This document shows, piece by piece, positions 5,312 through 22,801 of a stretch of DNA of 22,801 nucleotides (positions are counted from its first letter, which is position 1; the number at the start of each line of letters is the position of its first letter). The DNA lies in the IMG/VR virus record IMGVR_UViG_3300031806_000086, positions 1 through 22,801 of that record; one strand, given 5' to 3'. Under the pieces are notes generated by a model, which saw nothing but the letters and a program-made list of their open reading frames with translations, made no database searches and was not told the origin of the DNA. The translations under genes were made by a program, and so were the position numbers. This DNA is from a virus.

Positions 5312-5377
5312 ATGAAATGTTCAAAGTGTGGTTTCGTAGCAAATTCCGTAAAACTGAAAAAGGTAAAGAAGGGATGA
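5312..5377 (+). CDS. 21-residue CxxC ORF just ahead of the capsid gene
   Basis: ATG at 5312 with GGTGA four to five bases before it opens a 21-codon frame, MKCSKCGFVANSVKLKKVKK then G and stop. It has one CxxC knuckle and a basic tail. Its TGA (5375-5377) overlaps an ATG of the capsid gene as ATGA. It may be a tiny real gene, a leader that couples capsid translation, or the remnant of a zinc-ribbon domain. The capsid frame is also open from an ATG at 5317, which could share the same ribosome site, so translation of the small frame is unproven. Confidence 0.35.
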   Translation: MKCSKCGFVANSVKLKKVKKG

Positions 5378-6300
5378 TTATGCCCAAACTTTTCGAAGCA
5401 ATCATAAAGGATCCAGAATACCAGCCTATCCTACCCGATATTCTCAAAAGGGCTAAGTCAAACCTCATGGTGAACGCTGTCATGAGGGAGGCACTCCTCA
5501 GTGACGCGGCTGGAGCCCTTGGAAGGATGCATGACGTCGTGGTTGAAGCGGCAAAACCAGCCTTGATCGGAAGAGAAATCGTTTGGGTCTTACCAACCAC
5601 CGAAACCCTAGTGAGATTTCCAAGGGCTAAGCTTGGTAAAGCCCACAGAACCGCTGAGCTTTCGCAAATTTGGATCACTCAGGAAAAATATGACACAGTA
5701 GACATCAAAGCAGACATGGAAATCAAGGCGGGCGCAGAGTATTCCAAGAAGTTTTTCGAGGATGCATCATGGGGCGTTATGGAAAGGCAAACAGCAGAAG
5801 TGGGTAGAGCCATTGGAGAACTGGAAACTGAAAGGGTTTTGGCTCTATACGACGGCATCGCTGCAGGCGACCTCGCCGGAGGAGGCACATACAACGGCGC
5901 TGGAACCCTAGACTGGGCTGGTCTAGTCGGGTTCTGGAACAGGGTAAAGGCGGAAAACTTCAACGCCAAAGTTTTGGTTATTAACCCTAAACAACTCGCT
6001 GACTTGTGGCAACAAGATCAATTCATCCATAGCTTCTATTTCGGAGGCATGGCTGACATCCGCCGAGGCATTCTAGGCGAAACCTACCTAGGCATGAAAA
6101 TCGTTGTCAGCACCAAAGTGACGGATGGAACCGTGTACTGCATTGACACAGACGTTGCCGCCGTCATGCTTCTGAGACGAGACATTCTAACCGAACCCTT
6201 TGAAAACCCCAAAACAGACCGTTACGGCATCGTAGCCTCGGAGCGCATCGGACTTGGCGCACTGAGAAGCAAAGCAGTTGCACGAGGCTCTGGCTGGTAG
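5374..6300 (+). CDS. Major capsid protein, HK97 fold
   Basis: About 308 residues from the ATG at 5374 (MIMPKLFEAI). It forms the icosahedral shell. Visible features: an N-terminal helical arm (DILKRAKSNLMVNAVMREAL), an E-loop-like region (VLPTTETLVRFPRAKLGKAH), the DTVDIKADMEIKAGAEYSKK strand and spine region, the helix EVGRAIGELETERVLALYDG, and an A-domain with LVINPKQLADLW, FGGMADIRRGILGETYLGMK and ERIGLGALR near the end, all typical of archaeal and bacterial HK97-type capsid proteins. The frame extends back to an ATG at 5317, but that adds a very basic stretch. The ATGA overlap with the CxxC ORF favours 5374; an ATG at 5380 with AGAAGGG upstream is also possible. It follows the protease and decoration genes. 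Confidence 0.9.
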   Translation: MIMPKLFEAIIKDPEYQPILPDILKRAKSNLMVNAVMREALLSDAAGALGRMHDVVVEAAKPALIGREIVWVLPTTETLVRFPRAKLGKAHRTAELSQIWITQEKYDTVDIKADMEIKAGAEYSKKFFEDASWGVMERQTAEVGRAIGELETERVLALYDGIAAGDLAGGGTYNGAGTLDWAGLVGFWNRVKAENFNAKVLVINPKQLADLWQQDQFIHSFYFGGMADIRRGILGETYLGMKIVVSTKVTDGTVYCIDTDVAAVMLLRRDILTEPFENPKTDRYGIVASERIGLGALRSKAVARGSGW

Positions 6301-6350: not shown

Positions 6351-6584
6351 ATGGTTGAATGGGGTAACTACGCGGAAGCATACAAAGCCATTCACGATGC
6401 GATTAGAAGCAGCTTGACTAATGCGCCTGAAGGAAAATCCATAACGAAAATAGGTTTTTGGGAAGACGTGAACGGCAATATTAAATATATAAAATTCTAT
6501 GATGGCGCAGAACTGCTTTTCACGCTAACCCTTAGTAACGCCGGAGAAGCCACTTCGGAGACGTGGAGCATAACGAGGAGTTAA
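6351..6584 (+). CDS. Small structural-module protein, unrecognised
   Basis: A 77-residue protein starting MVEWGNYAEAYKAIHDAIRS, with GGTGA seven bases before the ATG. The second half (KIGFWEDVNGNIKYIKFYDG, then LLFTLTLSNAG) is a beta-rich unit of a kind often seen near fibre proteins in tailed viruses. Its stop is two bases before the fibre ATG, so the two are likely translated together. It could be a fibre-attachment or chaperone protein; no motif settles this. Confidence 0.55.
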   Translation: MVEWGNYAEAYKAIHDAIRSSLTNAPEGKSITKIGFWEDVNGNIKYIKFYDGAELLFTLTLSNAGEATSETWSITRS

Positions 6585-6586
6585 GC

Positions 6587-7921
6587 ATGGCTGAAGCAAC
6601 ACACTTATTGGACTTACCATTAAAGCATAAGCCTAAAGACATTAAACCGCAGGGAAGCGGAAGTGGGTTAGACGCAGATAAGGTTGACGGGTTGCATGCT
6701 TCCGAATTAGGGGGTGGTGGACCGCATGCAGCCATCCATGAAACTGGCGGCGGCGATAAAGTTCATTTTGCAGATTTAGAGAGAGGTGAACTTGACGCAA
6801 CACTACATGATGCTTTCACAGGGACGCCACATATCAGTCAAACTGAAAAAGACAAAATTCATGATAGACTACACGCTTTAGACTCAACTTTAGACCATTC
6901 AGGAGTCATTACAGACGCTCAACATGGAACCAAAACAACCATACCAGACGCCCATCATCGTAAGTGGAGCTGGGCAGATGAGCAGGGATGGAACCGAGAA
7001 ATCGTTGTTCCTCTGACGGGGAAAAGGATGTCTCCTGGCGGTGGTGGTGGAGGAGGGTGGACCCGAATAGGGCAAGTTTTAGGTTTAGGAGCCTCTGGGA
7101 CATGGGACGCTCTCCATGTAGAGCCCGCCTCTGCCCTTAAGGTAGGTAATGAAATCTTCCTTTATTATACGGGGCGAAACAGTACGGGAACCTATCGCTG
7201 TGGACTAGCAACAAGCGTTGATCCAAAAGGAACATTTACACGGTATGCTGGAAACCCAATTATTGATTTGGGAGGAGCAGGTGCTCCAGATGAAGTATGC
7301 GCCGCATGTCCAACTGTCGTTTATGATAGGGCTGAAAACATTTTTAAATTGTGGTACATTGGAGCGAGCGCCGCATGGGCTAACCGTTATCTTTGCTACG
7401 CAACTTCTAATGATGGAAAAAGCTGGACTAAGCGTAGTCCACCAAACGTTTACACTTTTCCCGGTTCTCCCAGTACAGATTGGGGACCTGTTGTGATTAA
7501 GGTTGGGAAATACTACTTCTGTGGTTACAGAGACGGAACCAGCGGCAATATCTATCTTCTCGCAAGCAACGATGGGATCAACTGGACAAATGAAGGTTCG
7601 ATTTTGAGTTTGGGCTCTGCCGGACAGTGGGATGACACCAATCTTAACTACATTGGGCTATTTTGGAATTTGGGAATTTGGTATTTAACATACACTGGAC
7701 GAAACAGTGCGGGAAATTCGGGGGTGGGGATGGCTACAAGCGTAGATGGATTCAACTTTACTAAATGGCGATACAACCCCATTTACTACAACAGTGCCAG
7801 CGGATTTGACAGCCAACGAGTGTATTGGGCAATCTTGCTGATGATTGATGATGTGTTTTACATGTACTATGGCGGTTTCAACGGAGTAAACATAACGATA
7901 GGCGTTGCTACCTTGCCGTGA
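6587..7921 (+). CDS. Tail fibre / receptor-binding protein with beta-propeller head
   Basis: 444 residues. The N-terminal part (about 1-150) is fibre-like: GLDADKVDGLHASELG is a common phage tail-fibre repeat motif, followed by His/Asp-rich low-complexity sequence and a poly-Gly hinge (SPGGGGGGGW). The C-terminal part (about 155-444) looks like a five-bladed beta-propeller of the GH43/GH32/GH130 type. Repeated units share a pattern such as IFLYYTGRNSTGTYRCGLAT, FKLWYIGASA and WYLTYTGRNSAGNSGVGMAT, each followed by S-x-DG. Such propellers bind or cut sugars, so this is the likely host-recognition protein. I could not assign catalytic acids with confidence. GAGGAG precedes the ATG at 6587. The protein sits unusually early, right after the capsid module rather than after the hub. 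Confidence 0.75.
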   Translation: MAEATHLLDLPLKHKPKDIKPQGSGSGLDADKVDGLHASELGGGGPHAAIHETGGGDKVHFADLERGELDATLHDAFTGTPHISQTEKDKIHDRLHALDSTLDHSGVITDAQHGTKTTIPDAHHRKWSWADEQGWNREIVVPLTGKRMSPGGGGGGGWTRIGQVLGLGASGTWDALHVEPASALKVGNEIFLYYTGRNSTGTYRCGLATSVDPKGTFTRYAGNPIIDLGGAGAPDEVCAACPTVVYDRAENIFKLWYIGASAAWANRYLCYATSNDGKSWTKRSPPNVYTFPGSPSTDWGPVVIKVGKYYFCGYRDGTSGNIYLLASNDGINWTNEGSILSLGSAGQWDDTNLNYIGLFWNLGIWYLTYTGRNSAGNSGVGMATSVDGFNFTKWRYNPIYYNSASGFDSQRVYWAILLMIDDVFYMYYGGFNGVNITIGVATLP

Positions 7922-8621: not shown

Positions 8622-9791
8622 ATGAAAAGAGTTTTGTTGACAGTACTTCTCTTATCGATTCTGGTAATGGCGGTAGCCCCGATAAAGATGACGACTTCAC
8701 GAGACACTTCAGTTAAACTGTCTGTGGTGGCGTTAGCGCAAGGGCGAGGCAGTGGAGATCCGCCGGACTTAACCCTATCATCTGGAGATATTGGTTTCAC
8801 GCCCTCAGAACCTGTTGTAGGAAAGATTGTTACCATAACCGCAACCATCCACAACATTGGATATACAAACGCAAAGGATGTGCTGGTAAACTTCTCCGCT
8901 AACTCTACCTCTATAGGGGAAGACGGAATAGAGGTGATTCCAAAAGGGCAAAGCAGATCAGCTAAGATCGATTGGATTCCTAAGGATGCAGGAAAATACA
9001 TAATCCGTGTCGTAGTTGATCCAAAGAATACGATAGCAGAATCTAATGAAGGAAACAACGAGGCGCCTAAGACCGTAGCAGTCCTCGAAGCGGCACCACC
9101 TCCACATGCCCCGCCTCCGCCAGCCATCGAATACGAACTTTTCATCGAAATAGATTACATAGAGGGACACGTACCGACACCAGAGGTCTTAGAATACATT
9201 GAATGGTACTACATGGGCAACAATCCAAGCGGAGAGTCAATCAAAGTGACGTTCTACGTTGACGACGTTGTGCCGCTGGATCAAAGCGTATCACACACAG
9301 ATTTTTGGGCTATTGAAGTGGCCTATAACAATATGGGCGATGATGCTTATGGCACAGGAGATCCTATTTTCGGTACGAGCGGAGTGTACTCTTCTAAGTG
9401 GAAGTGGGTTCTATTCGGCACCGTAGTTGAGGGGCAACCTGGCGTGGTAGGGTATTGTTACATAGTGAAGCAAAGAATCGGCCAGTGGCGGTGGGATCTG
9501 TTGGCTGGAAACTACATGTTCATAGCAGATGAGGCTGCTGACAATTGGGCGACAAAACAAGACCCACAGATAGAACCCTATGGAGCAGAGGCAGTAGCCT
9601 TAATGCACGAGATGGGACATAGCATAGGCATAGCCAAACTAGACTCAAGCGGAAAAGAGGTCTATGACCCCGACCGAGGCAGCGTCATGAGTTACCTATC
9701 GACTGCTAACGCAAAGCTATATGGGGCATGGTACTACAGCGACCAATACTGGGCCACAAGAAACCTAGAATATTATAGACCTGAGCCATAG
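8622..9791 (+). CDS. Secreted CARDB-metzincin-like metalloprotease
   Basis: 389 residues. Residues 1 to about 40 form a signal peptide (MKRVLLTVLLLSILVMAVAP). About 48-152 is a CARDB adhesion domain (VTITATIHNIGYTNAKDVLV, ending AESNEGNNEAPKTVAVL), a family typical of archaeal surface proteins. A proline hinge (APPPHAPPPP) leads to the catalytic part (about 170-389) with HEMGHSIGI (His329, Glu330, His333) and a Met-turn-like GSVMSY (Met356). The usual third ligand of metzincins at HExxHxxGxxH is Lys339 here; Asp341 might serve. It should act outside the cell on protein substrates. A strong GGAGAGGAG site precedes the ATG. It is not a virion assembly gene and looks like cargo placed between structural operons; the 106-bp terminator/promoter repeat follows it. 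Confidence 0.8.
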   Translation: MKRVLLTVLLLSILVMAVAPIKMTTSRDTSVKLSVVALAQGRGSGDPPDLTLSSGDIGFTPSEPVVGKIVTITATIHNIGYTNAKDVLVNFSANSTSIGEDGIEVIPKGQSRSAKIDWIPKDAGKYIIRVVVDPKNTIAESNEGNNEAPKTVAVLEAAPPPHAPPPPAIEYELFIEIDYIEGHVPTPEVLEYIEWYYMGNNPSGESIKVTFYVDDVVPLDQSVSHTDFWAIEVAYNNMGDDAYGTGDPIFGTSGVYSSKWKWVLFGTVVEGQPGVVGYCYIVKQRIGQWRWDLLAGNYMFIADEAADNWATKQDPQIEPYGAEAVALMHEMGHSIGIAKLDSSGKEVYDPDRGSVMSYLSTANAKLYGAWYYSDQYWATRNLEYYRPEP

Positions 9792-9921
9792 AAACTTCTC
9801 AAACTCCTTTTTTAAATTTCCATTTACCTTAGTTTATAACCTCGCTTTTGACTTGAATCATGGAAAACTTTACTAGAGGACCCCCGCGTTCTAGGAGCAC
9901 CGCTTCAGCGTTTAAATACTT

Positions 9922-10027
9922 CGCTTTTTCCGCCTTAATTTTTCTAAACCGCTTTTTTCCATCCGTTTTTTGCGTAAAACTGCTTAAATAAGCTTGTTTT
10001 CTTTAAATCTTCATAGAGCGTGGCTGA
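9922..10027 (+). repeat. 106-bp terminator/promoter repeat, copy A
   Basis: This segment matches 13891-13996 with no gaps, ending at the start codon in both copies. A run of 61 bases (9935-9995) is identical. It contains several T-runs (TTTTTC, CTTTTTTCC, GTTTTTTGCG) of the kind that end archaeal transcription, then a TATA box. It closes the metalloprotease transcript and starts the neck operon. Confidence 0.85.
9983..9991 (+). promoter_or_regulatory. TATA box for the neck operon (copy A)
   Basis: CTTAAATAA in the context CTGCTTAAATAAGC, 45 bases before the ATG at 10028, with the same spacing as in copy B. A second TATA-like box, GTTTAAATAC at 9910-9919, lies upstream outside the repeat. The gene has no clear ribosome site, consistent with a short leader. 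Confidence 0.6.
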
Positions 10028-10381
10028 ATGGCTAGCGTTTCACCCGACGACGTTAGAGACGTGATCAACGTTTCCTCAGTTGAAGTTCCAGACGCTAAGG
10101 TTTTGAAGATGATTAAGCGGGCTGAGGTTACGCTGGAGTTGGAGACTGGTCGAGAAATCGATTACAGCAACTGTACGGACGCTGAGAAAGAGTTCATCAC
10201 TGTTCTCGCCGCTGTCTACGTTATATGCTACCTCACAGGAGGTTCAGCTGTCGGCCTAAGCTTCTCTGTTGGAGATCAGAACGTAAGCGTGCTTGGTAGG
10301 GCTCCTCCGCTTGAGGTTTTGCAAGCTGAGCTGGAGCGCATGTTAAAGAAAATGCGGGGGCCAGCCTTAGGGAGGGTTTAG
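10028..10381 (+). CDS. Head-tail adaptor (gp6-like connector)
   Basis: 117 residues, all-helical: VSPDDVRDVINVSSVEVPDA, KVLKMIKRAEVTLELETGRE, then DAEKEFITVLAAVYVICYLT and a C-terminal helix (LEVLQAELERMLKKM). This is the usual pattern of head-tail connector proteins (HK97 gp6 / SPP1 gp15 type), which form a ring under the portal and join it to the neck. It is the first gene after promoter copy A and is followed after two bases by the head-closure gene. Assignment rests on fold pattern and position. Confidence 0.7.
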   Translation: MASVSPDDVRDVINVSSVEVPDAKVLKMIKRAEVTLELETGREIDYSNCTDAEKEFITVLAAVYVICYLTGGSAVGLSFSVGDQNVSVLGRAPPLEVLQAELERMLKKMRGPALGRV

Positions 10382-10383
10382 AA

Positions 10384-11799
10384 ATGGGAATGGTTCCAAC
10401 CAGTTATTACCAGTTCATCATCGACTACGCCCCATATTTCTATTACATTCCAGGCACAGGCGTTGACACGGAGTGGGGGAGGGGTCCGGCTCCAGCAGCC
10501 CACGCAATTGACTTTCTCTACGAAGCCTATTACGACAGCCAATTTGAAAGCAAAAAGACAGAAATCTACAATAAGATCGTCTCATTAGCTGACTTCCTAG
10601 TTTCACAGCAGTACGTTGCTGACCCTGCTAAACTGGCTTATGGCGGTTTCAAAAGCACAGAAACTAGCACCTACTATTATAGCATTGACGCCATTAGAGC
10701 TATTCCAGCCCTCTTGAAAGCTTACGACTTAACTGGAACCGCTGGATATTTGGATGCTGCCAAGCTGGCCGGCGGAACCTTCCTCTACAACATGCAGCAC
10801 AAACCAAGCGAGTTAGGCCAGCATGACAAGTATTATGGGGGATTTGCCCAAGCAGCCACCACAGCAGACGCTTGGCTCCCAAACATGCACATCATAGATC
10901 TCTACGGTCTGATCGGACTAAAAATGTTGTACGACCGCACCGAGGAGCCAGAATACAAGGCAATGATTGACGACGCCCTTGCCTTTTACCGCGAAGGGTT
11001 CAAGGACCTCTATCTCTATTATAAGCCTCCCCCAAGCGGAGACGGAAAGTGGCACAGGATAGGCTTGTCGGAAAACGAAATCTACGACGACGACTTCAGC
11101 TACGCGTTAAACGCTCTCTTCTGTTACGAAGGGTGGAGCGAAACGGTTGAGAAAGTTTACAACCTCATCAACACGATCGGTCCAAGCGTCGATTACCCAG
11201 CGTACAATCCAGCCGTCTGCTGGGCAGGCTACATCGACGTTGCTGGCAGAAAACCAGCCTGCGAATACTACGACGCTGTAACATCAGGGATATTGTGGCG
11301 GGTCAGGGCTGACTATGACGCCTTATCCCTAGAGTTCAGCGTCAAAGTAATCGGTTTACACCAAGACGAGTTCATGTACTGGGGTCCAAAATTTAATGAC
11401 TACAGCCCCATGGAAAACAAGAAGGCAACCGTCACCGTGTCATGGCTCTCCCTTCTCTTCCTCAAATACAATGCTGTTTTGACACCGTTCACAAGAATCT
11501 TGCGAAAACAGGGTGAAAGGGTGACTCTCTACCCGGTTAGAGAAGCTAGAGAATCTGTTTCTTACGGCGAAGAGCTCATCATTGAGGCTATTGTGAGCCA
11601 AGCTAGGCCAGATGAGATCATCATTGAGCCCGGCTACATCGTGAACGATTACATCACCATCCACGTTTTCTCAGCGATCCGGCACCACGACAAAATTGAG
11701 CGACAGGGCATAGCCTACGAAGTTGGCCCCGTAGAGGATTTCCGTTTTCAAGGAAAAACCATGTACCGCAGAGCCGTTTGCAGGAGGCTAATTGGCTAG
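10384..11799 (+). CDS. Head-closure protein fused to an alpha/alpha-toroid (glycosidase-like) domain
   Basis: 471 residues, about four times the length of a normal head-closure protein. Residues about 1-355 are a series of helical hairpins with aromatic loops (AAHAIDFLYEAYYDSQ, SIDAIRAIPALLKAYDLTGT, AKLAGGTFLYNMQHKP, LYGLIGLKMLYDRTEEPEYK, DDDFSYALNALFCYEGW), the look of a six-hairpin (alpha/alpha)6 glycosidase or lyase fold. Residues about 360-471 (TPFTRILRKQGERVTLYPVR, ELIIEAIVSQARPDEIIIEP, FSAIRHHDKIERQGIAYEV) are a small beta-barrel like head-closure or joining proteins (SPP1 gp16 / HK97 gp7 type). GGGAGGG precedes the ATG. The enzyme-like domain probably decorates the neck and may bind or cut surface glycans; catalytic residues cannot be assigned by eye. 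Confidence 0.7.
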   Translation: MGMVPTSYYQFIIDYAPYFYYIPGTGVDTEWGRGPAPAAHAIDFLYEAYYDSQFESKKTEIYNKIVSLADFLVSQQYVADPAKLAYGGFKSTETSTYYYSIDAIRAIPALLKAYDLTGTAGYLDAAKLAGGTFLYNMQHKPSELGQHDKYYGGFAQAATTADAWLPNMHIIDLYGLIGLKMLYDRTEEPEYKAMIDDALAFYREGFKDLYLYYKPPPSGDGKWHRIGLSENEIYDDDFSYALNALFCYEGWSETVEKVYNLINTIGPSVDYPAYNPAVCWAGYIDVAGRKPACEYYDAVTSGILWRVRADYDALSLEFSVKVIGLHQDEFMYWGPKFNDYSPMENKKATVTVSWLSLLFLKYNAVLTPFTRILRKQGERVTLYPVREARESVSYGEELIIEAIVSQARPDEIIIEPGYIVNDYITIHVFSAIRHHDKIERQGIAYEVGPVEDFRFQGKTMYRRAVCRRLIG

Positions 11800-11853
11800 A
11801 TGCCTGAAATTGAAGACCCAACTACAACGCTTGTTCGCCTTCTTTCTTATTAA
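11800..11853 (+). pseudogene. Broken 5' copy of the tail-terminator gene
   Basis: The ATG at 11800 directly follows the head-closure stop. The first 44 bases match the start of the intact gene at 13997 with one mismatch (protein MPEIEDPTTTLVRLL in both), then the frame runs into a stop at 11851. This marks where the tail-terminator gene originally began before the cassette at 11844-13996 separated it from its operon. Confidence 0.85.
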
Positions 11854-11872
11854 AGAAAAGAGCCTCTTTTCT
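11854..11872 (-). terminator. Hairpin terminator of the PKD surface-protein gene
   Basis: AGAAAAGA-GCC-TCTTTTCT forms an eight-pair stem with a three-base loop. Read on the minus strand it follows the cargo gene stop (11908) and is itself followed by TTTAATAAG. It would stop the cargo message from running into the head-closure gene. Confidence 0.5.
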
Positions 11873-11907
11873 GGGGAATGAATATGAAGGGTGAGAAAGG
11901 GAAGGAT

Positions 11908-13728
11908 TCATTGTTTCTTTTTCTTGAGTTTTATGAAGACCACTGTTGCAATCAATGGGACTATGATTGTTGATAGCCATATCAAAGGATTAGGCAATTC
12001 AGGATTATTCATTGGTATGTTTATTGGGATTGCTTTACCACCAACTGGGGGTGGTGGAGGAGCTGGCACGTATACGGCTGTCCATGTGGTGCCCGGTAGG
12101 GTGATTGTTTTAATTCTGCTGGTGTCTCCATCTTCAAGCCAGTGGAACCAGACGTATCGGTTGTGAGTTTGTGGCATCTCGAGCACATAGGAACCTTCAG
12201 GTAATATTTCACTGTGCGGTGTTATCCTTTTCGATCCATTTATGGTGTATGTTACTCCGCTTATAGGTGAAGAAGCAACAGTTAATTCATAGAATGGTGA
12301 CGTTATCCTAAGGTCAACATAAATCGTACTATTACCTCCGTTTTCACTAGACGCTGTTATGTTTCCATTGTACCAACCAATTGGCAAACTTACTGGTGCG
12401 TGAAATGTCACCGTTACATTTGTGTACATTCCTTTTGGTATTGTAATCCCGTTTTTGTTGAACGTCACATTGCCAGAGGATATAGTATAGTTATCGGGGT
12501 TTTTCAAGTCAGATGCCTGAAAAGCCACGCCATACAAGTCTGTTTGGTTAAGACTTTCTCCGGCTAGGAACTCTGTAGTCGCATATTGCCCACTTTGTAC
12601 ACTTATCTCTAAATGGTCTGGAATGACTCTCAATTTTGCCGTAACCGCAAGCTGCACATTAACAGTTTGAGTGATGTTGCTGGTGAGGTCGTCATTATCT
12701 GTTACCTTTAATGTCACGTTGTAACTACCAGCAGTATTGTAGATGTATCTAAAGGTCTTCGTTGTTCTCTGGTCACCATCTCCTAGCCACCATTGATGTG
12801 TCGTGATAAACCCGTCTGGGTCAAAACTGGTTGAGGTGAAGACGACTTCTTCACCAGCAATTGGTTTGATTGGTGTCCAGTAAAACAAAGCGCTAGGCGG
12901 TTTTTCTGGAGGAGAAGGTGGTATACGTGAACAAATCCAATGCGCGTCATAGCAGGTAAACCACACAATCCGATACACACCCCATGGTGTCCACACGTCG
13001 GTATATACCTCGTGTTCCTCTATTTCCCACCAGCTTTTGCTGGTTGCGACGTAATAATGACCATCTAGCACTAGCCCGACGTGATACCAAAAGGGCAAGT
13101 AAGGAATGTAAAAATCAAATGACCCCAAATGGTAATGATCTGGTGGATATCCATAAGGCGTGTGTGTACCAGTGTCGTCATCATTACTATCAGTTCTTAG
13201 CAAGGTATACAAAACATAGGGAATAGACGCCCAAACAAAGGGAGCTTGATTTAGTAATACACTTAATAGATACTCTGAAATTTCCTCGAGGATCATGTAA
13301 ACTTGAATAATTATCGTGGCGATTATGACTATGGGCAGGATCCAGTAAACGAGATATTCAACGACTTCCTCTAGGAAGTGGAAATGAATAGCCTTAACTA
13401 CACCAATATATGGGTGGTCAGTAAGTGTATCAGGTATTGTTGCCGATGCTAGGATTGTAACGTTGTGTGGGTTAATAAGGGTAGCAGTGAGGTTGATTAA
13501 AGTCTCGTTACCAACAACTGTAATATTCGCTGTCACCAAGATATGGTAAGTGTCTTCGCTTGTGATTATTACGAAAAGTGTCTCTTTGTAATAAGGTTCG
13601 TCAATTAATTTAGTGATTGAGATGTTTTGGACTCGGGCATGAGCAACACCGATCGGTAAGCAACAGGTCGCAATCAGAACCACGAAAATCATAACGAAAG
13701 TAACATAACGCTTTTTGGAAAACTTCAC
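11908..13728 (-). CDS. Secreted, membrane-anchored PKD-domain surface protein (cargo)
   Basis: 606 residues. Signal peptide 1-31 (KKRYVTFVMIFVVLIATCCL). A beta-rich region with several N-x-S/T sites (about 33-110) is followed by hydrophobic helices (about 124-148, YLVYWILPIVIIATIIIQVY, and about 153-177). An aromatic-rich segment (190-262) leads to a PKD domain (about 279-360: FTSTSFDPDGFITTHQWWLG, DGDQ, YNTAGSYNVTLKVTDNDDLT). Two further beta-sandwich segments, a Pro linker (PAPPPPP) and an NPELPNP motif precede a C-terminal membrane anchor (581-600) ending LKKKK. It would sit in the host envelope with its domains outside. GTG start with AAGGAGAGGAGA upstream, a leader like that of the metalloprotease at 8622. 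It is encoded against the structural genes; possible roles include surface exclusion or adhesion, not shown by sequence. Confidence 0.8.
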   Translation of the reverse strand: MKFSKKRYVTFVMIFVVLIATCCLPIGVAHARVQNISITKLIDEPYYKETLFVIITSEDTYHILVTANITVVGNETLINLTATLINPHNVTILASATIPDTLTDHPYIGVVKAIHFHFLEEVVEYLVYWILPIVIIATIIIQVYMILEEISEYLLSVLLNQAPFVWASIPYVLYTLLRTDSNDDDTGTHTPYGYPPDHYHLGSFDFYIPYLPFWYHVGLVLDGHYYVATSKSWWEIEEHEVYTDVWTPWGVYRIVWFTCYDAHWICSRIPPSPPEKPPSALFYWTPIKPIAGEEVVFTSTSFDPDGFITTHQWWLGDGDQRTTKTFRYIYNTAGSYNVTLKVTDNDDLTSNITQTVNVQLAVTAKLRVIPDHLEISVQSGQYATTEFLAGESLNQTDLYGVAFQASDLKNPDNYTISSGNVTFNKNGITIPKGMYTNVTVTFHAPVSLPIGWYNGNITASSENGGNSTIYVDLRITSPFYELTVASSPISGVTYTINGSKRITPHSEILPEGSYVLEMPQTHNRYVWFHWLEDGDTSRIKTITLPGTTWTAVYVPAPPPPPVGGKAIPINIPMNNPELPNPLIWLSTIIVPLIATVVFIKLKKKKQ

Positions 13729-13778
13729 GATTCTCTCCTCTCCTTTCTCCGTTCAGCATTCAAAAATAGGCAATTCAA

Positions 13779-13787
13779 ATATTTAAT
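13779..13787 (-). promoter_or_regulatory. TATA-like element of the PKD gene
   Basis: On the minus strand AGCATTAAATATTTG lies about 50-60 bases before the GTG at 13728, followed by the leader with the GGAGAGGAG ribosome site. The cargo therefore has its own promoter, independent of the tail operon. Confidence 0.45.
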
Positions 13788-13890
13788 GCTTAAGGAACAT
13801 TCTTCTATTGAATCAAATACGATCATAGTAAAAACATAACGAATGTAAACGTTTGATGAAAGTATTTTCATAGAACTGTTTCTAACACTC

Positions 13891-13996
13891 CACTTTTTTA
13901 GCTTTAATTTTTCTAAACCGCTTTTTTCCATCCGTTTTTTGCGTAAAACTGCTTAAATAAGCTTATTTACTTTAAATCTTTCCAGAGTGTGGCTAA
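13891..13996 (+). repeat. 106-bp terminator/promoter repeat, copy B
   Basis: Ungapped match to 9922-10027. Differences cluster in the last 45 bases and at the first 13. It carries the same T-runs and the TATA box CTTAAATAA (13952-13960), again 45 bases before an ATG (13997). It drives the tail-terminator gene and probably the tail operon behind it. Confidence 0.85.
13952..13960 (+). promoter_or_regulatory. TATA box for the tail operon (copy B)
   Basis: CTTAAATAA at the same place within the repeat as in copy A. Spacing to the start codon is 45 bases in both copies, although the bases just before the start differ. Confidence 0.6.
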
Positions 13997-14974
13997 ATGC
14001 CTGAAATTGAAGACCCAACTACAACGCTGGTTCGCCTTCTGGACAAAAACGTGAGGGTAATGAAGGAAGATGGGTCCCTAGCCAGCATTCACGTCAGCGC
14101 CGAGTGGTACGACCGCGAACTCCTCAAGGATTATGACGGCCAGGTGACGGTTGGTCTCGACCGCAGCGAAGATCAAAAGCTTGGGCTTTCAGCAACAAGC
14201 CGGAGACGCGTTGGCTACTCACGAATAAACGTCTGGGTGATTGATAAACCGGGCAGCGTTGTTGGCAGAGACTTGCGGAACAAGCTTCGTGAGGAGGTTA
14301 ACCGCGTCATAAGGGAGAAGAGGACGAAGCCAAACGAAACCAGCTACAATTTTTTGGGTGTTGGACAAGCCGCTGAGACTCATAAAGCCTATCACGCTGG
14401 GTCGGCTGGCGAACTGGCTCCAGGAGACGCAGGCTGGACTGAGCTCACGAACACTGAGTATGAGAAGCTCTGGTACAGCGACGACAGCCGCTTCAGCCGC
14501 TTAACTTCTGTCAACCTAAACTATGCTCAGCTGCTTTTCAGATTCAAGGTGGACCTGGATGAGAAGGTTGTCAAAAAGATTGTGTTGAAGTTTGAGGGTT
14601 ATGGAACCGCTCCAACTGGAAACGGAGTTACAATTAAGGTTTGGAATTTTACGGCTTCAGCTTGGCAAAACGCCCAAGCTGGCACAGGTGGAGAAGACGA
14701 AACAATCACAATCACGTTAACATCATCCTTAACCGACTTCATCGATGCTGAAGGCTACGTGTACCTGCTTGCGAGAACCACCAACCCAAGTAATGGTGCG
14801 ACACCAGCCGCAATTTACTGCGACTATTCTGAGTGTGGGATAACGGTTGAAGGCATAGCCTATGCAGACATTGTTTCTTATCGAGACGAAGATGAGGTGC
14901 GGGTTAAGCCGTTTTTGTGGCGCACCGAGTTCACAGTCAAAACCTGGCTGTTTGAAAATGTCACGGTCATGTAG
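13997..14974 (+). CDS. Tail-terminator/completion protein with inserted beta-sandwich domain
   Basis: 325 residues. Residues about 1-112 match the pattern of tail-terminator proteins: TTTLVRLLDKNVRVMKEDGS, a short strand region, then RRVGYSRINVWVIDKPGSVV and the helix LRNKLREEVNRVIREKRTKP. The closing strand of that fold, VKPFLWRTEFTVKTWLFENV, appears only at the C-terminus (about 303-322). Between them (about 125-293) lies a jelly-roll-like domain (NYAQLLFRFKVDLDEKVVKK, IVLKFEGYG, TIKVWNFTASAWQNAQ, TSSLTDFIDAEGYVYLLART), similar to carbohydrate-binding or adhesion domains. The protein caps the tail tube and joins it to the neck; the insert would project outward. It follows promoter copy B. 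A broken copy of its start lies at 11800. Confidence 0.7.
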   Translation: MPEIEDPTTTLVRLLDKNVRVMKEDGSLASIHVSAEWYDRELLKDYDGQVTVGLDRSEDQKLGLSATSRRRVGYSRINVWVIDKPGSVVGRDLRNKLREEVNRVIREKRTKPNETSYNFLGVGQAAETHKAYHAGSAGELAPGDAGWTELTNTEYEKLWYSDDSRFSRLTSVNLNYAQLLFRFKVDLDEKVVKKIVLKFEGYGTAPTGNGVTIKVWNFTASAWQNAQAGTGGEDETITITLTSSLTDFIDAEGYVYLLARTTNPSNGATPAAIYCDYSECGITVEGIAYADIVSYRDEDEVRVKPFLWRTEFTVKTWLFENVTVM

Positions 14975-14991
14975 GAGAGGTGAGAAAAATA

Positions 14992-15834
14992 ATGGCTACA
15001 CCAGTGTATGGCGCGCATGAGGCAAAAGTCTACTATGTGGAAGAAGCAACGTACGGAGTAACTCCAGCCACCCCATCAATGTTGGGCATCGCAACAGCGG
15101 AAAACGTGGAACCAGCGCTGAATCCGGGGCTTATTAAGGTTCGAGGCGTCGGGTCGAGAGACCTAAACGTTATCAAGAGGGGATTGAGGCAGGTGGAGCT
15201 CAAAATAGCGTATGCGATTCCTAGCGACGCTTCCATCGACTTTCTCCAGCACATCCAAACATTGAAGTCGCTGAGCATCGAAGTTTTCTATGAGAAAACA
15301 AGCGGCATCATTGATCTGCTGCATAAGGGTTGCAGATTCAACCGCTTAACAGTTGAATGTTCTGTGGAGGACGTTTTGAAAGCAGCAGCCGAGTTGATAG
15401 GTCAAGACATGGCTGTGGGAACAGCTAAGATCAGCGGCGCAACGTACAGTGACTATGTAGGAGCTGTGCCTTTCTACGAAAGCTATGTTAAGAAGGGTGC
15501 AACAACGCTGGAACGTGTAACCGACTTCAGGTTTGTGATTGAGAATAACCTGAAACGTGTTCCTGTCATCAGGACTACCAGTGGATACTTGCTCAAGTAC
15601 CTTCCAGAGCGACACCGAAACTGCAGCGGCGAGGTTACCTTTGAATTTGAGAGCAAAGAGGAGTTTGACAATGTCATCAACGACACGGAGTTCAACCTAG
15701 AGTTTGGGTTAGGAGGCGCCCGCAAGGCTGTTTTCAGCAACTGTAAGTGGGAAAACGTTGGAACACCAACACGCATAGAGGACCTAGTTGCTTTGAAAGC
15801 TCCCTTCGTCGCCAAAACTGTAGCAATCAGTTAG
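14992..15834 (+). CDS. Major tail tube protein
   Basis: 280 residues from the ATG at 14992 (MATPVYGAHEAKVYYVEEAT), with AGGAGAGGTG 11 bases upstream; a GTG at 14980 is also in frame but overlaps this site. The opening YYVEEATYGVTPATPSMLGI and repeated beta strands (ELKIAYAIPSDASIDFLQ, RVTDFRFVIENNLKRV, EVTFEFESKEEFDNVIND) resemble tail tube proteins of siphoviruses, which stack as rings to make the tail. It lies directly before the tail assembly chaperones, as in most long-tailed viruses. Confidence 0.75.
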   Translation: MATPVYGAHEAKVYYVEEATYGVTPATPSMLGIATAENVEPALNPGLIKVRGVGSRDLNVIKRGLRQVELKIAYAIPSDASIDFLQHIQTLKSLSIEVFYEKTSGIIDLLHKGCRFNRLTVECSVEDVLKAAAELIGQDMAVGTAKISGATYSDYVGAVPFYESYVKKGATTLERVTDFRFVIENNLKRVPVIRTTSGYLLKYLPERHRNCSGEVTFEFESKEEFDNVINDTEFNLEFGLGGARKAVFSNCKWENVGTPTRIEDLVALKAPFVAKTVAIS

Positions 15835-21313: not shown

Positions 21314-22801
21314 ATGCGACGCAGAGAAGTATTTATCATAACTAAATTTGCAAGAAGATACGACAAAACCACAGGCACCTTCAAAATTAACATAAGCTAC
21401 AAAACGAAAACCGACATAACCGATCGAACCATCGCTGTCTCAGAGGCTTTTGGACTTGGCGTTGATGACTATCGAGATTTCACTATTTATGACAATGTAG
21501 AATTAAAGATTTCACCTGCAGACATCGTCTACATAACAGGGGATTCTGGATCAGGCAAGAGTGTTCTGCTGAAGGCGTTGGAGGAGGACCTGGGGTTCCA
21601 AGCGATCAACATAACCAGCACGACTGTGGACCCAGATAAACCCCTCATCGACACCGTTGGCGAAACACTTGAAGAGGGTTTGGAGTTTCTAAGTCGAGTA
21701 GGCTTAAACGATGCTTTCCTTTTTGTGCGTCGTTACAACCAGCTGAGCGATGGACAGAAGTATCGCTACAGAATCGCAAAAATGATTGAGGCTGGGAAGC
21801 AGTATTGGGTCATGGACGAATTCTGCAGCACACTGGATCGGGACACCGCGAAAGTCGTAGCGTTTAATGTTCAGAGACTGGCGAGACAAGAGGGCAAGGC
21901 TGTTCTGGCGGCAACCACCCACACAGACCTCTTTGAGGATCTAAAGCCTTCGGTTCACGTCCACAAGAGGTTTGGTAGGGAAATTGAGGTCAGGTATTTT
22001 CCTAACGAAGTCAACAAAGCCTGCTCTTTTGTTAGGGAGATGTACGTCGCGGAGGGGTCTAGACGAGACTATGAAAAGTTGGCTGGGTTCCATTATAGGG
22101 ATGCTAGAGGCTTGGCTGCCGCCCAAAAGATTTTCGTTTTGAAGCGAAGGGATGAAACTGTTGGCGTTATTGTTTACAAGTATCCTCCTATCACAACCTT
22201 TGGGAGACACAAAGCCTTTGGCAGAAGCCTCTCCGTTGAGGAGATAAACCGTAACCTATCGTTAATCTCACGTGCAATTGTCCATCCGAAATACCGCACA
22301 ATCGGACTGGGCGTCAAGCTGGTCAAGGAAACACTGCCCTTAGCAGATAAGCCCTACGTCGAAACAGTTGCGGTGATGGCGAAGTACAACCGCTTCTTCG
22401 AGAGAGCAGGAATGGAGAAGATTGCAGAATCAACGCCGTCAAAATATGTTTTAGAGGCTATTGAAAAACTGCGATCCTTAGGGTTCAACCCAATCCTGCT
22501 TTCAAGCGAGAAAACCAACATGCGAAGGCTAAAGAAAATGCCGAAGAAGGAGGTTGAAGAGGTAAAAACCGTCTTAAAGACTTTGTGTAAACGAGAACGG
22601 GGATATGGAAGGCGCCTGTTAAAGACTAAGAGCGTCTTTCCGAAGCCAGAGGAAGCAGGGAAGGTGATAGACGAAACTAGCTTAGAGAAGCTGGCGAAAA
22701 CCCTTAGAATTTTAAGCTTCCTAGCTCAAACGAAAGTCTATTTAATTTGGAGGAAAAAGCTAAGGACGAGTCGAAATGATTCTTTAGCCCAAATGTTGTA
22801 G
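21314..22801 (+). CDS. ABC-type ATPase fused to a GNAT acetyltransferase domain (COG2401-like)
   Basis: 495 residues, complete; its TAG is the last codon of the window. Residues about 1-225 are a soluble ABC ATPase: Walker A GDSGSGKS (76-83), a signature LSDGQ (144-148), Walker B YWVMDEF (164-170) and the switch His203 (THTD). There are no membrane helices, so it is not a transporter. Residues about 228-380 form a GNAT-like domain with the acetyl-CoA motif AIVHPKYRTIGLGVKLV (321-337) and MAKYNRFFERAGM near its end; the rest is charged and helical. This pair of domains defines COG2401, seen mainly in archaea and of unproven function. It begins two bases after the terminase stop codon's first base-pair set (TAGATG), so it is in the packaging operon and may act in packaging, DNA handling or modification. 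Confidence 0.85.
   Translation: MRRREVFIITKFARRYDKTTGTFKINISYKTKTDITDRTIAVSEAFGLGVDDYRDFTIYDNVELKISPADIVYITGDSGSGKSVLLKALEEDLGFQAINITSTTVDPDKPLIDTVGETLEEGLEFLSRVGLNDAFLFVRRYNQLSDGQKYRYRIAKMIEAGKQYWVMDEFCSTLDRDTAKVVAFNVQRLARQEGKAVLAATTHTDLFEDLKPSVHVHKRFGREIEVRYFPNEVNKACSFVREMYVAEGSRRDYEKLAGFHYRDARGLAAAQKIFVLKRRDETVGVIVYKYPPITTFGRHKAFGRSLSVEEINRNLSLISRAIVHPKYRTIGLGVKLVKETLPLADKPYVETVAVMAKYNRFFERAGMEKIAESTPSKYVLEAIEKLRSLGFNPILLSSEKTNMRRLKKMPKKEVEEVKTVLKTLCKRERGYGRRLLKTKSVFPKPEEAGKVIDETSLEKLAKTLRILSFLAQTKVYLIWRKKLRTSRNDSLAQML

What the first reader, a model, noticed from the sequence alone, without database searches (positions are those of the whole stretch)
11800..14040. Cargo cassette inserted between two neck genes, leaving a broken gene start and a 44-bp direct repeat
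The first 44 bases of the tail-terminator gene occur twice (11800-11843 and 13997-14040, one mismatch). The first copy sits exactly where the gene should follow head closure, then runs into a stop; 2.15 kb later the intact gene begins. The cargo gene lies on the opposite strand with its own promoter and hairpin terminator. No transposase is present and 44 bp is too long for a usual target duplication. Recombination with a related virus whose terminator gene already stood behind promoter copy B would explain it.
Basis: partly seen in the sequence, partly recalled or inferred. Interest (0 to 1): 0.72.

Follow-up and report, generated by a model that had tools for sequence, protein, structure and literature searches.

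The report
Swappable cargo slot in archaeal virus
In a tailed virus of Bathyarchaeota (uncultured archaea), an extra gene sits between two virion-assembly genes that touch in 51 of 54 junctions examined; the repeat noticed is a leftover copy of the downstream gene's start, and three close relatives carry three different genes in that slot, so it looks like a recombination-made cargo slot that adds a second promoter rather than a transposon insertion.

Summary
The repeat is real: 44 nt with one mismatch, extending to 51 nt with two. Copy A abuts the upstream gene's stop and dies after 17 codons; copy B starts the intact downstream gene. A 119-nt promoter block before the connector gene is also duplicated before copy B (88%). 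Of 54 junctions examined, 51 have the two neck genes abutting or overlapping (gap -7 to +5 nt), including an 85%-identical provirus in a Bathyarchaeota chromosome. Only the window and two ~86-90% relatives carry an insert (2197, 703, 688 nt). These hold three different cargos but share promoter B and copy A, so the slot is older than the present cargo. Copy A has decayed in both relatives but is near-perfect here, and the insert lies in a mosaic tract (~11775-14199) closer to one relative inside a background closer to the other (permutation P = 0.004). Best reading: a moron-type cargo slot, created by overlap recombination that duplicated gene start and promoter, then refilled by recombination between related viruses. 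No recombinase was recognised. One relative's cassette also sits in a bathyarchaeal chromosome without a detected provirus of this type, as part of a 1131-bp insert. Mechanism is inferred.

The parts
8622..9791 (+). Cargo of the upstream slot: secreted CARDB-domain protein with HExxH motif (metalloprotease-like)
   Evidence: PF07705 CARDB E 6e-22; HEMGH read from sequence; the same place holds an unrelated minus-strand 158-aa membrane protein in L054
9915..10033 (+). Promoter block A, in front of the connector gene; likely the parent of promoter block B
   Evidence: 88% repeat of 13884-14002; also present in L003 and in cargo-free L054
10028..10381 (+). Connector/adaptor-like gene (117 aa), first gene after promoter A
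   Evidence: conserved in position in nearly all relatives; no Pfam match, so the name is from gene order
10384..11799 (+). Head-closure-like gene: N-terminal alpha/alpha-toroid (sugar 2-epimerase / GH76-like fold) plus C-terminal beta domain
   Evidence: model pLDDT 79, Foldseek to 2-epimerases; PF06662 E 2e-4; PHROG virion structural protein E 0.011 at the C-terminus
11775..14199 (.). Mosaic tract around the insert: flanks L004-like, surroundings L003-like
   Evidence: segment scan of parsimony-informative sites, 12 of 14 sites, permutation P 0.004
11793..11843 (+). Copy A: stranded first 44 nt of the terminator gene plus 7 nt before it; 17-codon ORF ending at 11850
11853..11873 (-). Hairpin past the cargo stop, terminator candidate
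   Evidence: 8-bp stem in RNA fold; z -1.0, not exceptional
11908..13728 (-). Cargo gene, 606 aa: signal-like N-terminus, internal hydrophobic segments, PKD domain, C-terminal hydrophobic anchor with basic tail
   Evidence: PF18911 PKD_4 E 7e-15; hydrophobic segments read from sequence; only domain-level matches in bathyarchaeal genomes; no relative found in viral contigs
13884..13996 (+). Promoter block B; TATA-bearing core TTTTTGCGTAAAACTGCTTAAATA at 13936-13959
   Evidence: copy of block A; present behind three different cargos in window, L003 and L004 and in G052; CTTAAATA kept in all seven copies
13990..14040 (+). Copy B: start of the intact terminator gene
   Evidence: the first 44 coding nt are identical to L004
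13997..14974 (+). Tail-terminator-like gene (325 aa) with an inserted jelly-roll domain (about 120-284)
   Evidence: AlphaFold2 model pLDDT 90.8; some relatives match only residues 1-112; jelly-roll / CBM-type fold hits

Best explanation
This is a moron-type cargo slot in a tailed virus of Bathyarchaeota. Ancestrally the head-closure-like and terminator-like genes touched and were presumably transcribed together. In the ancestor of the window, L003 and L004, an illegitimate, overlapping recombination joined a genome broken about 44-46 nt inside the terminator gene to DNA carrying a cargo gene followed by a copy of the virus's own upstream promoter fused at the terminator ATG. The upstream gene thus keeps a useless stub of the next gene (copy A), while the intact gene restarts from promoter B, so a cargo of either orientation can sit between without silencing the tail genes. 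The cargo has since been replaced at least twice. In the window virus a cassette (cargo + promoter B + gene start) appears to have arrived by recombination with an L004-like virus, which also renewed copy A. Shown: absence in 51 of 54 junctions, three different cargos, shared promoter B, decayed versus fresh copy A, mosaic tract. Inferred: order and chemistry of the events, promoter activity, cargo function (probably a host-surface or membrane protein expressed from the provirus).
For: Junction survey: 51 gaps of -7 to +5 nt against 688, 703 and 2197 nt. L054 provirus with contiguous genes and promoter A but no promoter B. L003 carries a PaREP1/HEPN-like gene (E 2e-4, below Pfam's cut-off) and L004 an unrelated 97-aa gene plus a 28-nt perfect remnant of the L003 cargo start. 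Carriers form one clade downstream of the slot (support 0.99) and promoter B copies group together (support 0.85). Copy A versus B: 1 of 44 differs in the window, about 15% plus gaps in L003, about 27% plus gaps in L004. Fourfold-site divergence of 20-33% between these viruses makes a one-mismatch old copy unlikely (rough Poisson estimate below 0.01). Mosaic tract 11775-14199 (P 0.004). Similar leftovers flank cargo at the connector slot of distant proviruses: L062 (connector leader and start duplicated around a MazE-like/PIN pair) and L055 (three promoter copies and two copies of an upstream gene end interleaved with cargo).
Against: Only three carriers, all assembled viral contigs. The mosaic tract rests on 14 informative sites, and mosaicism is common along these genomes, so a breakpoint near the slot may be coincidence. 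In the gene upstream of the slot the tree does not keep the three carriers together. Window promoter B is no closer to L004 than to L003 (84% each). Copy A carries one base found in L003 rather than L004. The proposed microhomology at the promoter-ATG join (TGGCT-AATG) is short and could be chance.
Confidence: 0.68

Rival explanations
1. The cassette (cargo + promoter B + gene start) is itself a mobile unit: recombination between the two 44-nt copies excises it cleanly and restores the ancestral junction, and the excised circle can re-enter any genome carrying the gene start, by homologous or trans-acting site-specific recombination.
For: Copy A sits exactly where the ancestral gene start would be, so A x B recombination would restore the operon. 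Fresh copy A in the window. Three cargos between the same repeats. A bathyarchaeal chromosome (G052) carries the L003-type cargo (93% aa) + promoter B + about 14-19 nt of the gene start as part of a 1131-bp insert in a gene intact in related genomes, with no terminator gene of this type found in that assembly.
Against: No recombinase in any slot. Copies in L003 and L004 have decayed. The chromosomal copy has the gene start on one side only; its other 550 bp are unrelated to any virus found; its ends show an imperfect 8-bp host repeat or a 5-nt microhomology (AGATC), which fits illegitimate capture as well. One case only.
Confidence: 0.17
2. Transposition or integration of a cargo element with a 44-nt target-site duplication.
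For: Direct repeat flanking a foreign gene; the host-chromosome copy has an imperfect 8-bp flanking repeat.
Against: 44 nt is far longer than ordinary target duplications. No terminal inverted repeats or transposase seen. The right boundary of the supposed element would be promoter B, yet the chromosomal copy continues into the gene start. Promoter B is a copy of the virus's own promoter A. The left boundary differs between the window (CTTCT/TTC) and L003/L004 (CTTCTGG/TRGTTGAG).
Confidence: 0.05
3. Copy A was simply homogenised by gene conversion from copy B; the cargo swap and the fresh repeat are unrelated.
For: Copy A carries B-lineage states (GAAGACCCAACT) not seen in L003/L004 copy A.
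Against: Copy A ends at a different position from L003/L004 and runs straight into DNA of the new cargo, so the cargo side changed too.
Confidence: 0.08
4. Assembly artefact joining two strains.
For: All three viral carriers are assembled contigs and reads were not available.
Against: The same architecture with different inserts is present in two other viral contigs, which carry different metagenome identifiers.
Confidence: 0.02

Closest known systems
Morons of lambdoid and other tailed phages
   Same: Extra gene with its own candidate signals between two genes contiguous in relatives; PMC3029335 and PMC6316719 describe morons in these terms, including insertions inside late gene modules
   Different: Here the insert carries a copy of the virus's own promoter that restarts the downstream gene and leaves a stub of that gene's start; the same slot holds different cargos in close relatives
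Mobile regulatory cassettes / PeSL motifs of T4-type phages (Arbiol 2010; Comeau 2014)
   Same: Repeated promoter motifs next to small exchangeable genes, proposed to mediate modular shuffling (from titles cited in held papers, and memory)
   Different: Those papers were not held and could not be read; here the repeat is one late promoter duplicated once plus a coding-gene start, with no promoter-plus-stem-loop unit demonstrated
Start-associated sequences (SAS/ESAS) of cluster K mycobacteriophages
   Different: SAS are conserved 13-bp motifs before many genes; here a single long duplication including coding sequence that decays in relatives
Conserved boundary sequences between mosaic phage modules
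   Same: Homologous recombination at short shared sequences exchanges the module between them (mechanism summarised in PMC3029335)
   Different: The shared sequence here is a direct repeat produced by the insertion, not an ancestral linker

Membership tests
Moron (phage cargo insertion) | Inserted between two genes that are contiguous in relatives | tested here: met
   51 of 54 junctions contiguous, L054 at 85% identity
Moron (phage cargo insertion) | Present in one genome, absent from close relatives | tested here: met
   three different cargos in three relatives; the window cargo was not found in any other viral contig
Moron (phage cargo insertion) | Own promoter and terminator | tested here: inconclusive
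   TATA-like stretch and 8-bp hairpin only; hairpin z -1.0
Moron (phage cargo insertion) | Expressed from the integrated virus, not needed for growth | not testable with these tools
   no culture or expression data
DNA transposon / insertion sequence | Transposase in or near the element | tested here: not met
   no such Pfam match among the window genes scanned; none in the L003 or L004 slot genes
DNA transposon / insertion sequence | Same element ends at each insertion | tested here: not met
   left ends differ between window and L003/L004; the chromosomal copy extends into the gene start
Integrase-type integrative element | Recombinase plus attL/attR core | tested here: not met
   a 44-nt repeat is present but no recombinase in the slots; the repeat has decayed in L003 and L004
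PeSL mobile regulatory cassette | Promoter plus stem-loop unit repeated at several sites with exchangeable genes | tested here: inconclusive
   promoter block at two sites in the window and L003, three promoter copies in L055; no conserved stem-loop tested; source papers not held

The most novel reading that the evidence does not exclude
A self-contained exchange cassette (cargo + copied late promoter + first bases of the next gene) that uses the duplicated gene start as its recombination arm, so that it leaves and enters the neck-gene junction without damaging either gene, and that also reaches host chromosomes.
Probability: 0.18. Interest if true: 0.62.

Novelty: new variant of a known kind. 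Interest (0 to 1): 0.42.

Why it matters
How phage morons first enter tightly packed late operons without silencing the genes behind them is rarely caught in the act. Here the ancestral junction, the stub of the broken gene, the copied promoter that would rescue transcription, and three different fillings can all be seen among relatives 85-90% alike, in archaeal viruses that appear uncultured. It gives a concrete, testable route (copy your own promoter, leave a stub, swap the filling) and a signature, gene-start leftovers next to promoter copies, that can be searched for in other viruses.

Tried and rejected
Relatives of the window cargo among viral contigs: none; in eight bathyarchaeal genomes only domain-level matches, mainly the PKD stretch. 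Whether slot-2 cargos occur in slot 1 of relatives: none do, so the two-step model (tandem duplication of slot 1, then deletion of the connector and closure copies) is not directly supported. Gene-start duplication as a general feature: significant at the connector in L062 and at the terminator only in the three carriers, plus repeated promoters in L055; absent in most loci. PADLOC: no defence match for the slot cargos; an HD-domain gene at 1352-1909 matches a dGTPase model. Fold searches of the two neck proteins returned the accessory domains (carbohydrate-binding-like jelly-roll; sugar-epimerase toroid), so neck identity stays by gene order. The core papers on PeSLs and one review of morons are not held.
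Full report
OBSERVATION. The 44-nt repeat at 11800-11843 and 13997-14040 exists with one mismatch and extends to 51 nt with two. Copy A follows the TAG of the upstream gene immediately, reads about 16 codons and stops; copy B starts a 325-codon gene. A second, longer repeat (119 nt, 88%) links 9915-10033, the AT-rich block in front of the connector gene, with 13884-14002, the block in front of copy B. Self-comparison gives E 2e-17 and 5e-38 for these repeats. The window is a 22.8-kb viral record.

SURROUNDINGS. Gene order is that of a tailed-virus morphogenesis module: major head protein (5317-6300, PHROG major head protein E 1e-8), connector-like (10028), head-closure-like (10384), terminator-like (13997), tail tube (14980, Phage_tube_2 E 8e-21), neck/tail completion (16360, PHROG E 5e-25), terminase (19928, E 2e-15). 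The closure-like protein has an N-terminal alpha/alpha toroid resembling sugar 2-epimerases and GH76 mannanases; the terminator-like protein carries an inserted jelly-roll. Both neck names are by position and weak matches.

RELATIVES. Searches with the terminator-like and closure-like proteins gave about 50 viral contigs and 11 loci in bathyarchaeal genomes. Of 54 usable junctions, 51 have the two genes touching or overlapping; only the window (2197 nt), L003 (703) and L004 (688) have an insert. The nearest cargo-free relative, in the chromosome CP070759.1 (L054), is about 85% identical along most of the module, has promoter A but no promoter B, and reads ...ATTGGCTAAATGCTTGAAATTG..., closure stop and terminator ATG joined.

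CARGO TURNOVER. L003 has a plus-strand PaREP1-type gene in the slot (E 2e-4, below Pfam's cut-off; PaREP1 belongs to the HEPN superfamily, PMC3710099). L004 has an unrelated 97-aa gene and, further on, 28 nt identical to the start of the L003 cargo, the stub of a lost gene. The window has a minus-strand 606-aa PKD-domain protein with signal-like and anchor segments. All three share promoter B with common diagnostic bases (TTCCAGAGTGTGG), and L003 and L004 share the join CTTCTGG/TRGTTGAG after copy A. The slot is therefore older than any present cargo. Carriers are one clade downstream of the slot (support 0.99); the promoter tree puts B copies together with support 0.85. In the gene upstream of the slot the three do not form a clade, because L003 is there closer to L054, a further sign of recombination.

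AGE OF COPY A AND MOSAIC TRACT. Fourfold sites in the terminator gene differ by 20-33% among these viruses. Copy A has decayed in L003 (about 85% with gaps, E 6e-10) and L004 (73%, E 0.004), but in the window it differs from copy B at one of 44 sites and carries B-lineage bases. A scan of informative sites found a segment from 11775 to 14199 in which the window matches L004 (12 of 14), between L003-like segments 10959-11710 and 14786-15180; after removal of a stronger L004-like block at 10600-10740, such a segment arises in 0.4% of permutations. Such mosaic blocks are common along the genome, so recombination between co-occurring relatives is ordinary here. The parsimonious reading is that cargo, promoter B and gene start came in together from an L004-like virus.

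ORIGIN OF THE SLOT (inferred). Promoter B is derived from promoter A, since A is in L054 and B is not. Both blocks end at the start codon within a shared TGGCT-AATG. One route is a tandem overlap: a genome broken 44-46 nt into the terminator gene joined to DNA upstream of a cargo-promoter pair, followed by loss of the redundant connector-closure copy at that short homology. I could not find slot-2 cargo in slot 1 of relatives, so this remains a proposal. The upstream slot itself is hypervariable: from the winged-helix gene to the connector, 0.14 kb in L031 to about 5.7 kb in L063 (coordinates). Analogous leftovers occur there: in L062 the leader and start of the connector gene are duplicated (E 5e-7) on either side of a MazE-like/PIN pair, and L055 has three promoter copies and two copies of an upstream gene end interleaved with cargo.

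A CASSETTE IN A HOST CHROMOSOME. A search of 257 genomes of the class found, in one assembly (G052), PaREP1 at 93% aa to the L003 cargo, followed by promoter B and the beginning of the terminator gene. The 19-nt gene-start pattern occurs in no other of the 257, and no terminator gene of this type was found in that assembly (no positive control in that search). Five related genomes have the site empty: the 1131-bp insert interrupts a gene that reads as 247 aa in G071. The flanks are AGAACTTC and AGATCTTC, either an imperfect 8-bp duplication or, since AGATC also occurs at that point of the terminator gene, a 5-nt microhomology join. About 550 bp of the insert matches nothing found. There is an ambiguous base further along this contig, so its wider structure should be treated with care. 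This shows that the cassette can leave the virus, not how.

MECHANISM AND RIVALS. The most likely account is a moron-type slot created by overlapping illegitimate recombination and refilled by recombination between relatives. Ordinary transposition fits poorly: no transposase, no constant ends, a 44-nt duplication, a promoter of viral origin, and a chromosomal copy that runs past the supposed end. A cassette that cycles through its 44-nt repeat is not excluded: A x B recombination would restore the ancestral operon. Gene conversion alone does not explain why the DNA next to copy A also changed.

KNOWN KINDS. PMC3029335 describes morons as DNA inserted between genes contiguous in other phages, typically an ORF flanked by promoter and terminator, and PMC6316719 describes morons between late genes of SPP1. 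The window meets the positional criteria; promoter and terminator were seen only as sequence. Repeated promoter motifs that shuffle genes in T4-type phages (Arbiol 2010; Comeau 2014) and the start-associated sequences of cluster K mycobacteriophages (PMC3203893) are the nearest analogies; the first two papers could not be read. Bathyarchaeia tailed viruses and proviruses have been catalogued (PMC10848311, PMC11705971); a term search found no mention of morons in either, nor of cargo in the latter.

LIMITS. Three carriers, few informative sites, no reads, no expression data, metagenome collection closed.

Noticed in passing
L081 (G052:C3), reverse-strand insert, L081 8720-9851: A 1131-bp insert in a bathyarchaeal chromosome carries the L003-type PaREP1 cargo, promoter B and about 14-19 nt of the viral terminator gene, plus a minus-strand 130-aa membrane protein gene; five related genomes have the empty site.
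   Followed up: partly
L055 1-5400: Connector slot with three promoter copies and two copies of an upstream gene's 3' end interleaved with membrane, DUF4258-type, GNAT and HAD-like cargo, as if slot contents of several viruses had been strung together.
   Followed up: partly
L062 3033-4431: Leader and start of the connector gene duplicated around a MazE-like/PIN toxin-antitoxin-like pair, the same anatomy as the window at another slot.
   Followed up: partly
L054 (CP070759.1) and flanks L083, L084: The bin28 element is about 19 kb of head, tail and terminase genes between housekeeping genes; the nearest integrase match is about 66 kb away and no replication gene was recognised by eye: a defective provirus or possibly a gene-transfer-agent-like element.
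   Followed up: partly
window 6563-7921: Gene after the head protein has a conserved N-terminus but a C-terminal part (GH32/43/130-like beta-propeller matches) replaced by an unrelated domain in L003.
   Followed up: no
window 10384-11799 and 13997-14974: Both neck genes carry accessory carbohydrate-enzyme-like or carbohydrate-binding-like domains; some relatives match only the first 112 residues of the terminator-like protein.
   Followed up: partly
L051 5892-7976: Head-closure-like gene is interrupted by about 490 bp near residue 165 and about 170 bp near residue 20.
   Followed up: no
window 21314-22801: Gene at the right end fuses an ABC-type ATPase to a GNAT acetyltransferase domain and is conserved next to the terminase.
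   Followed up: no
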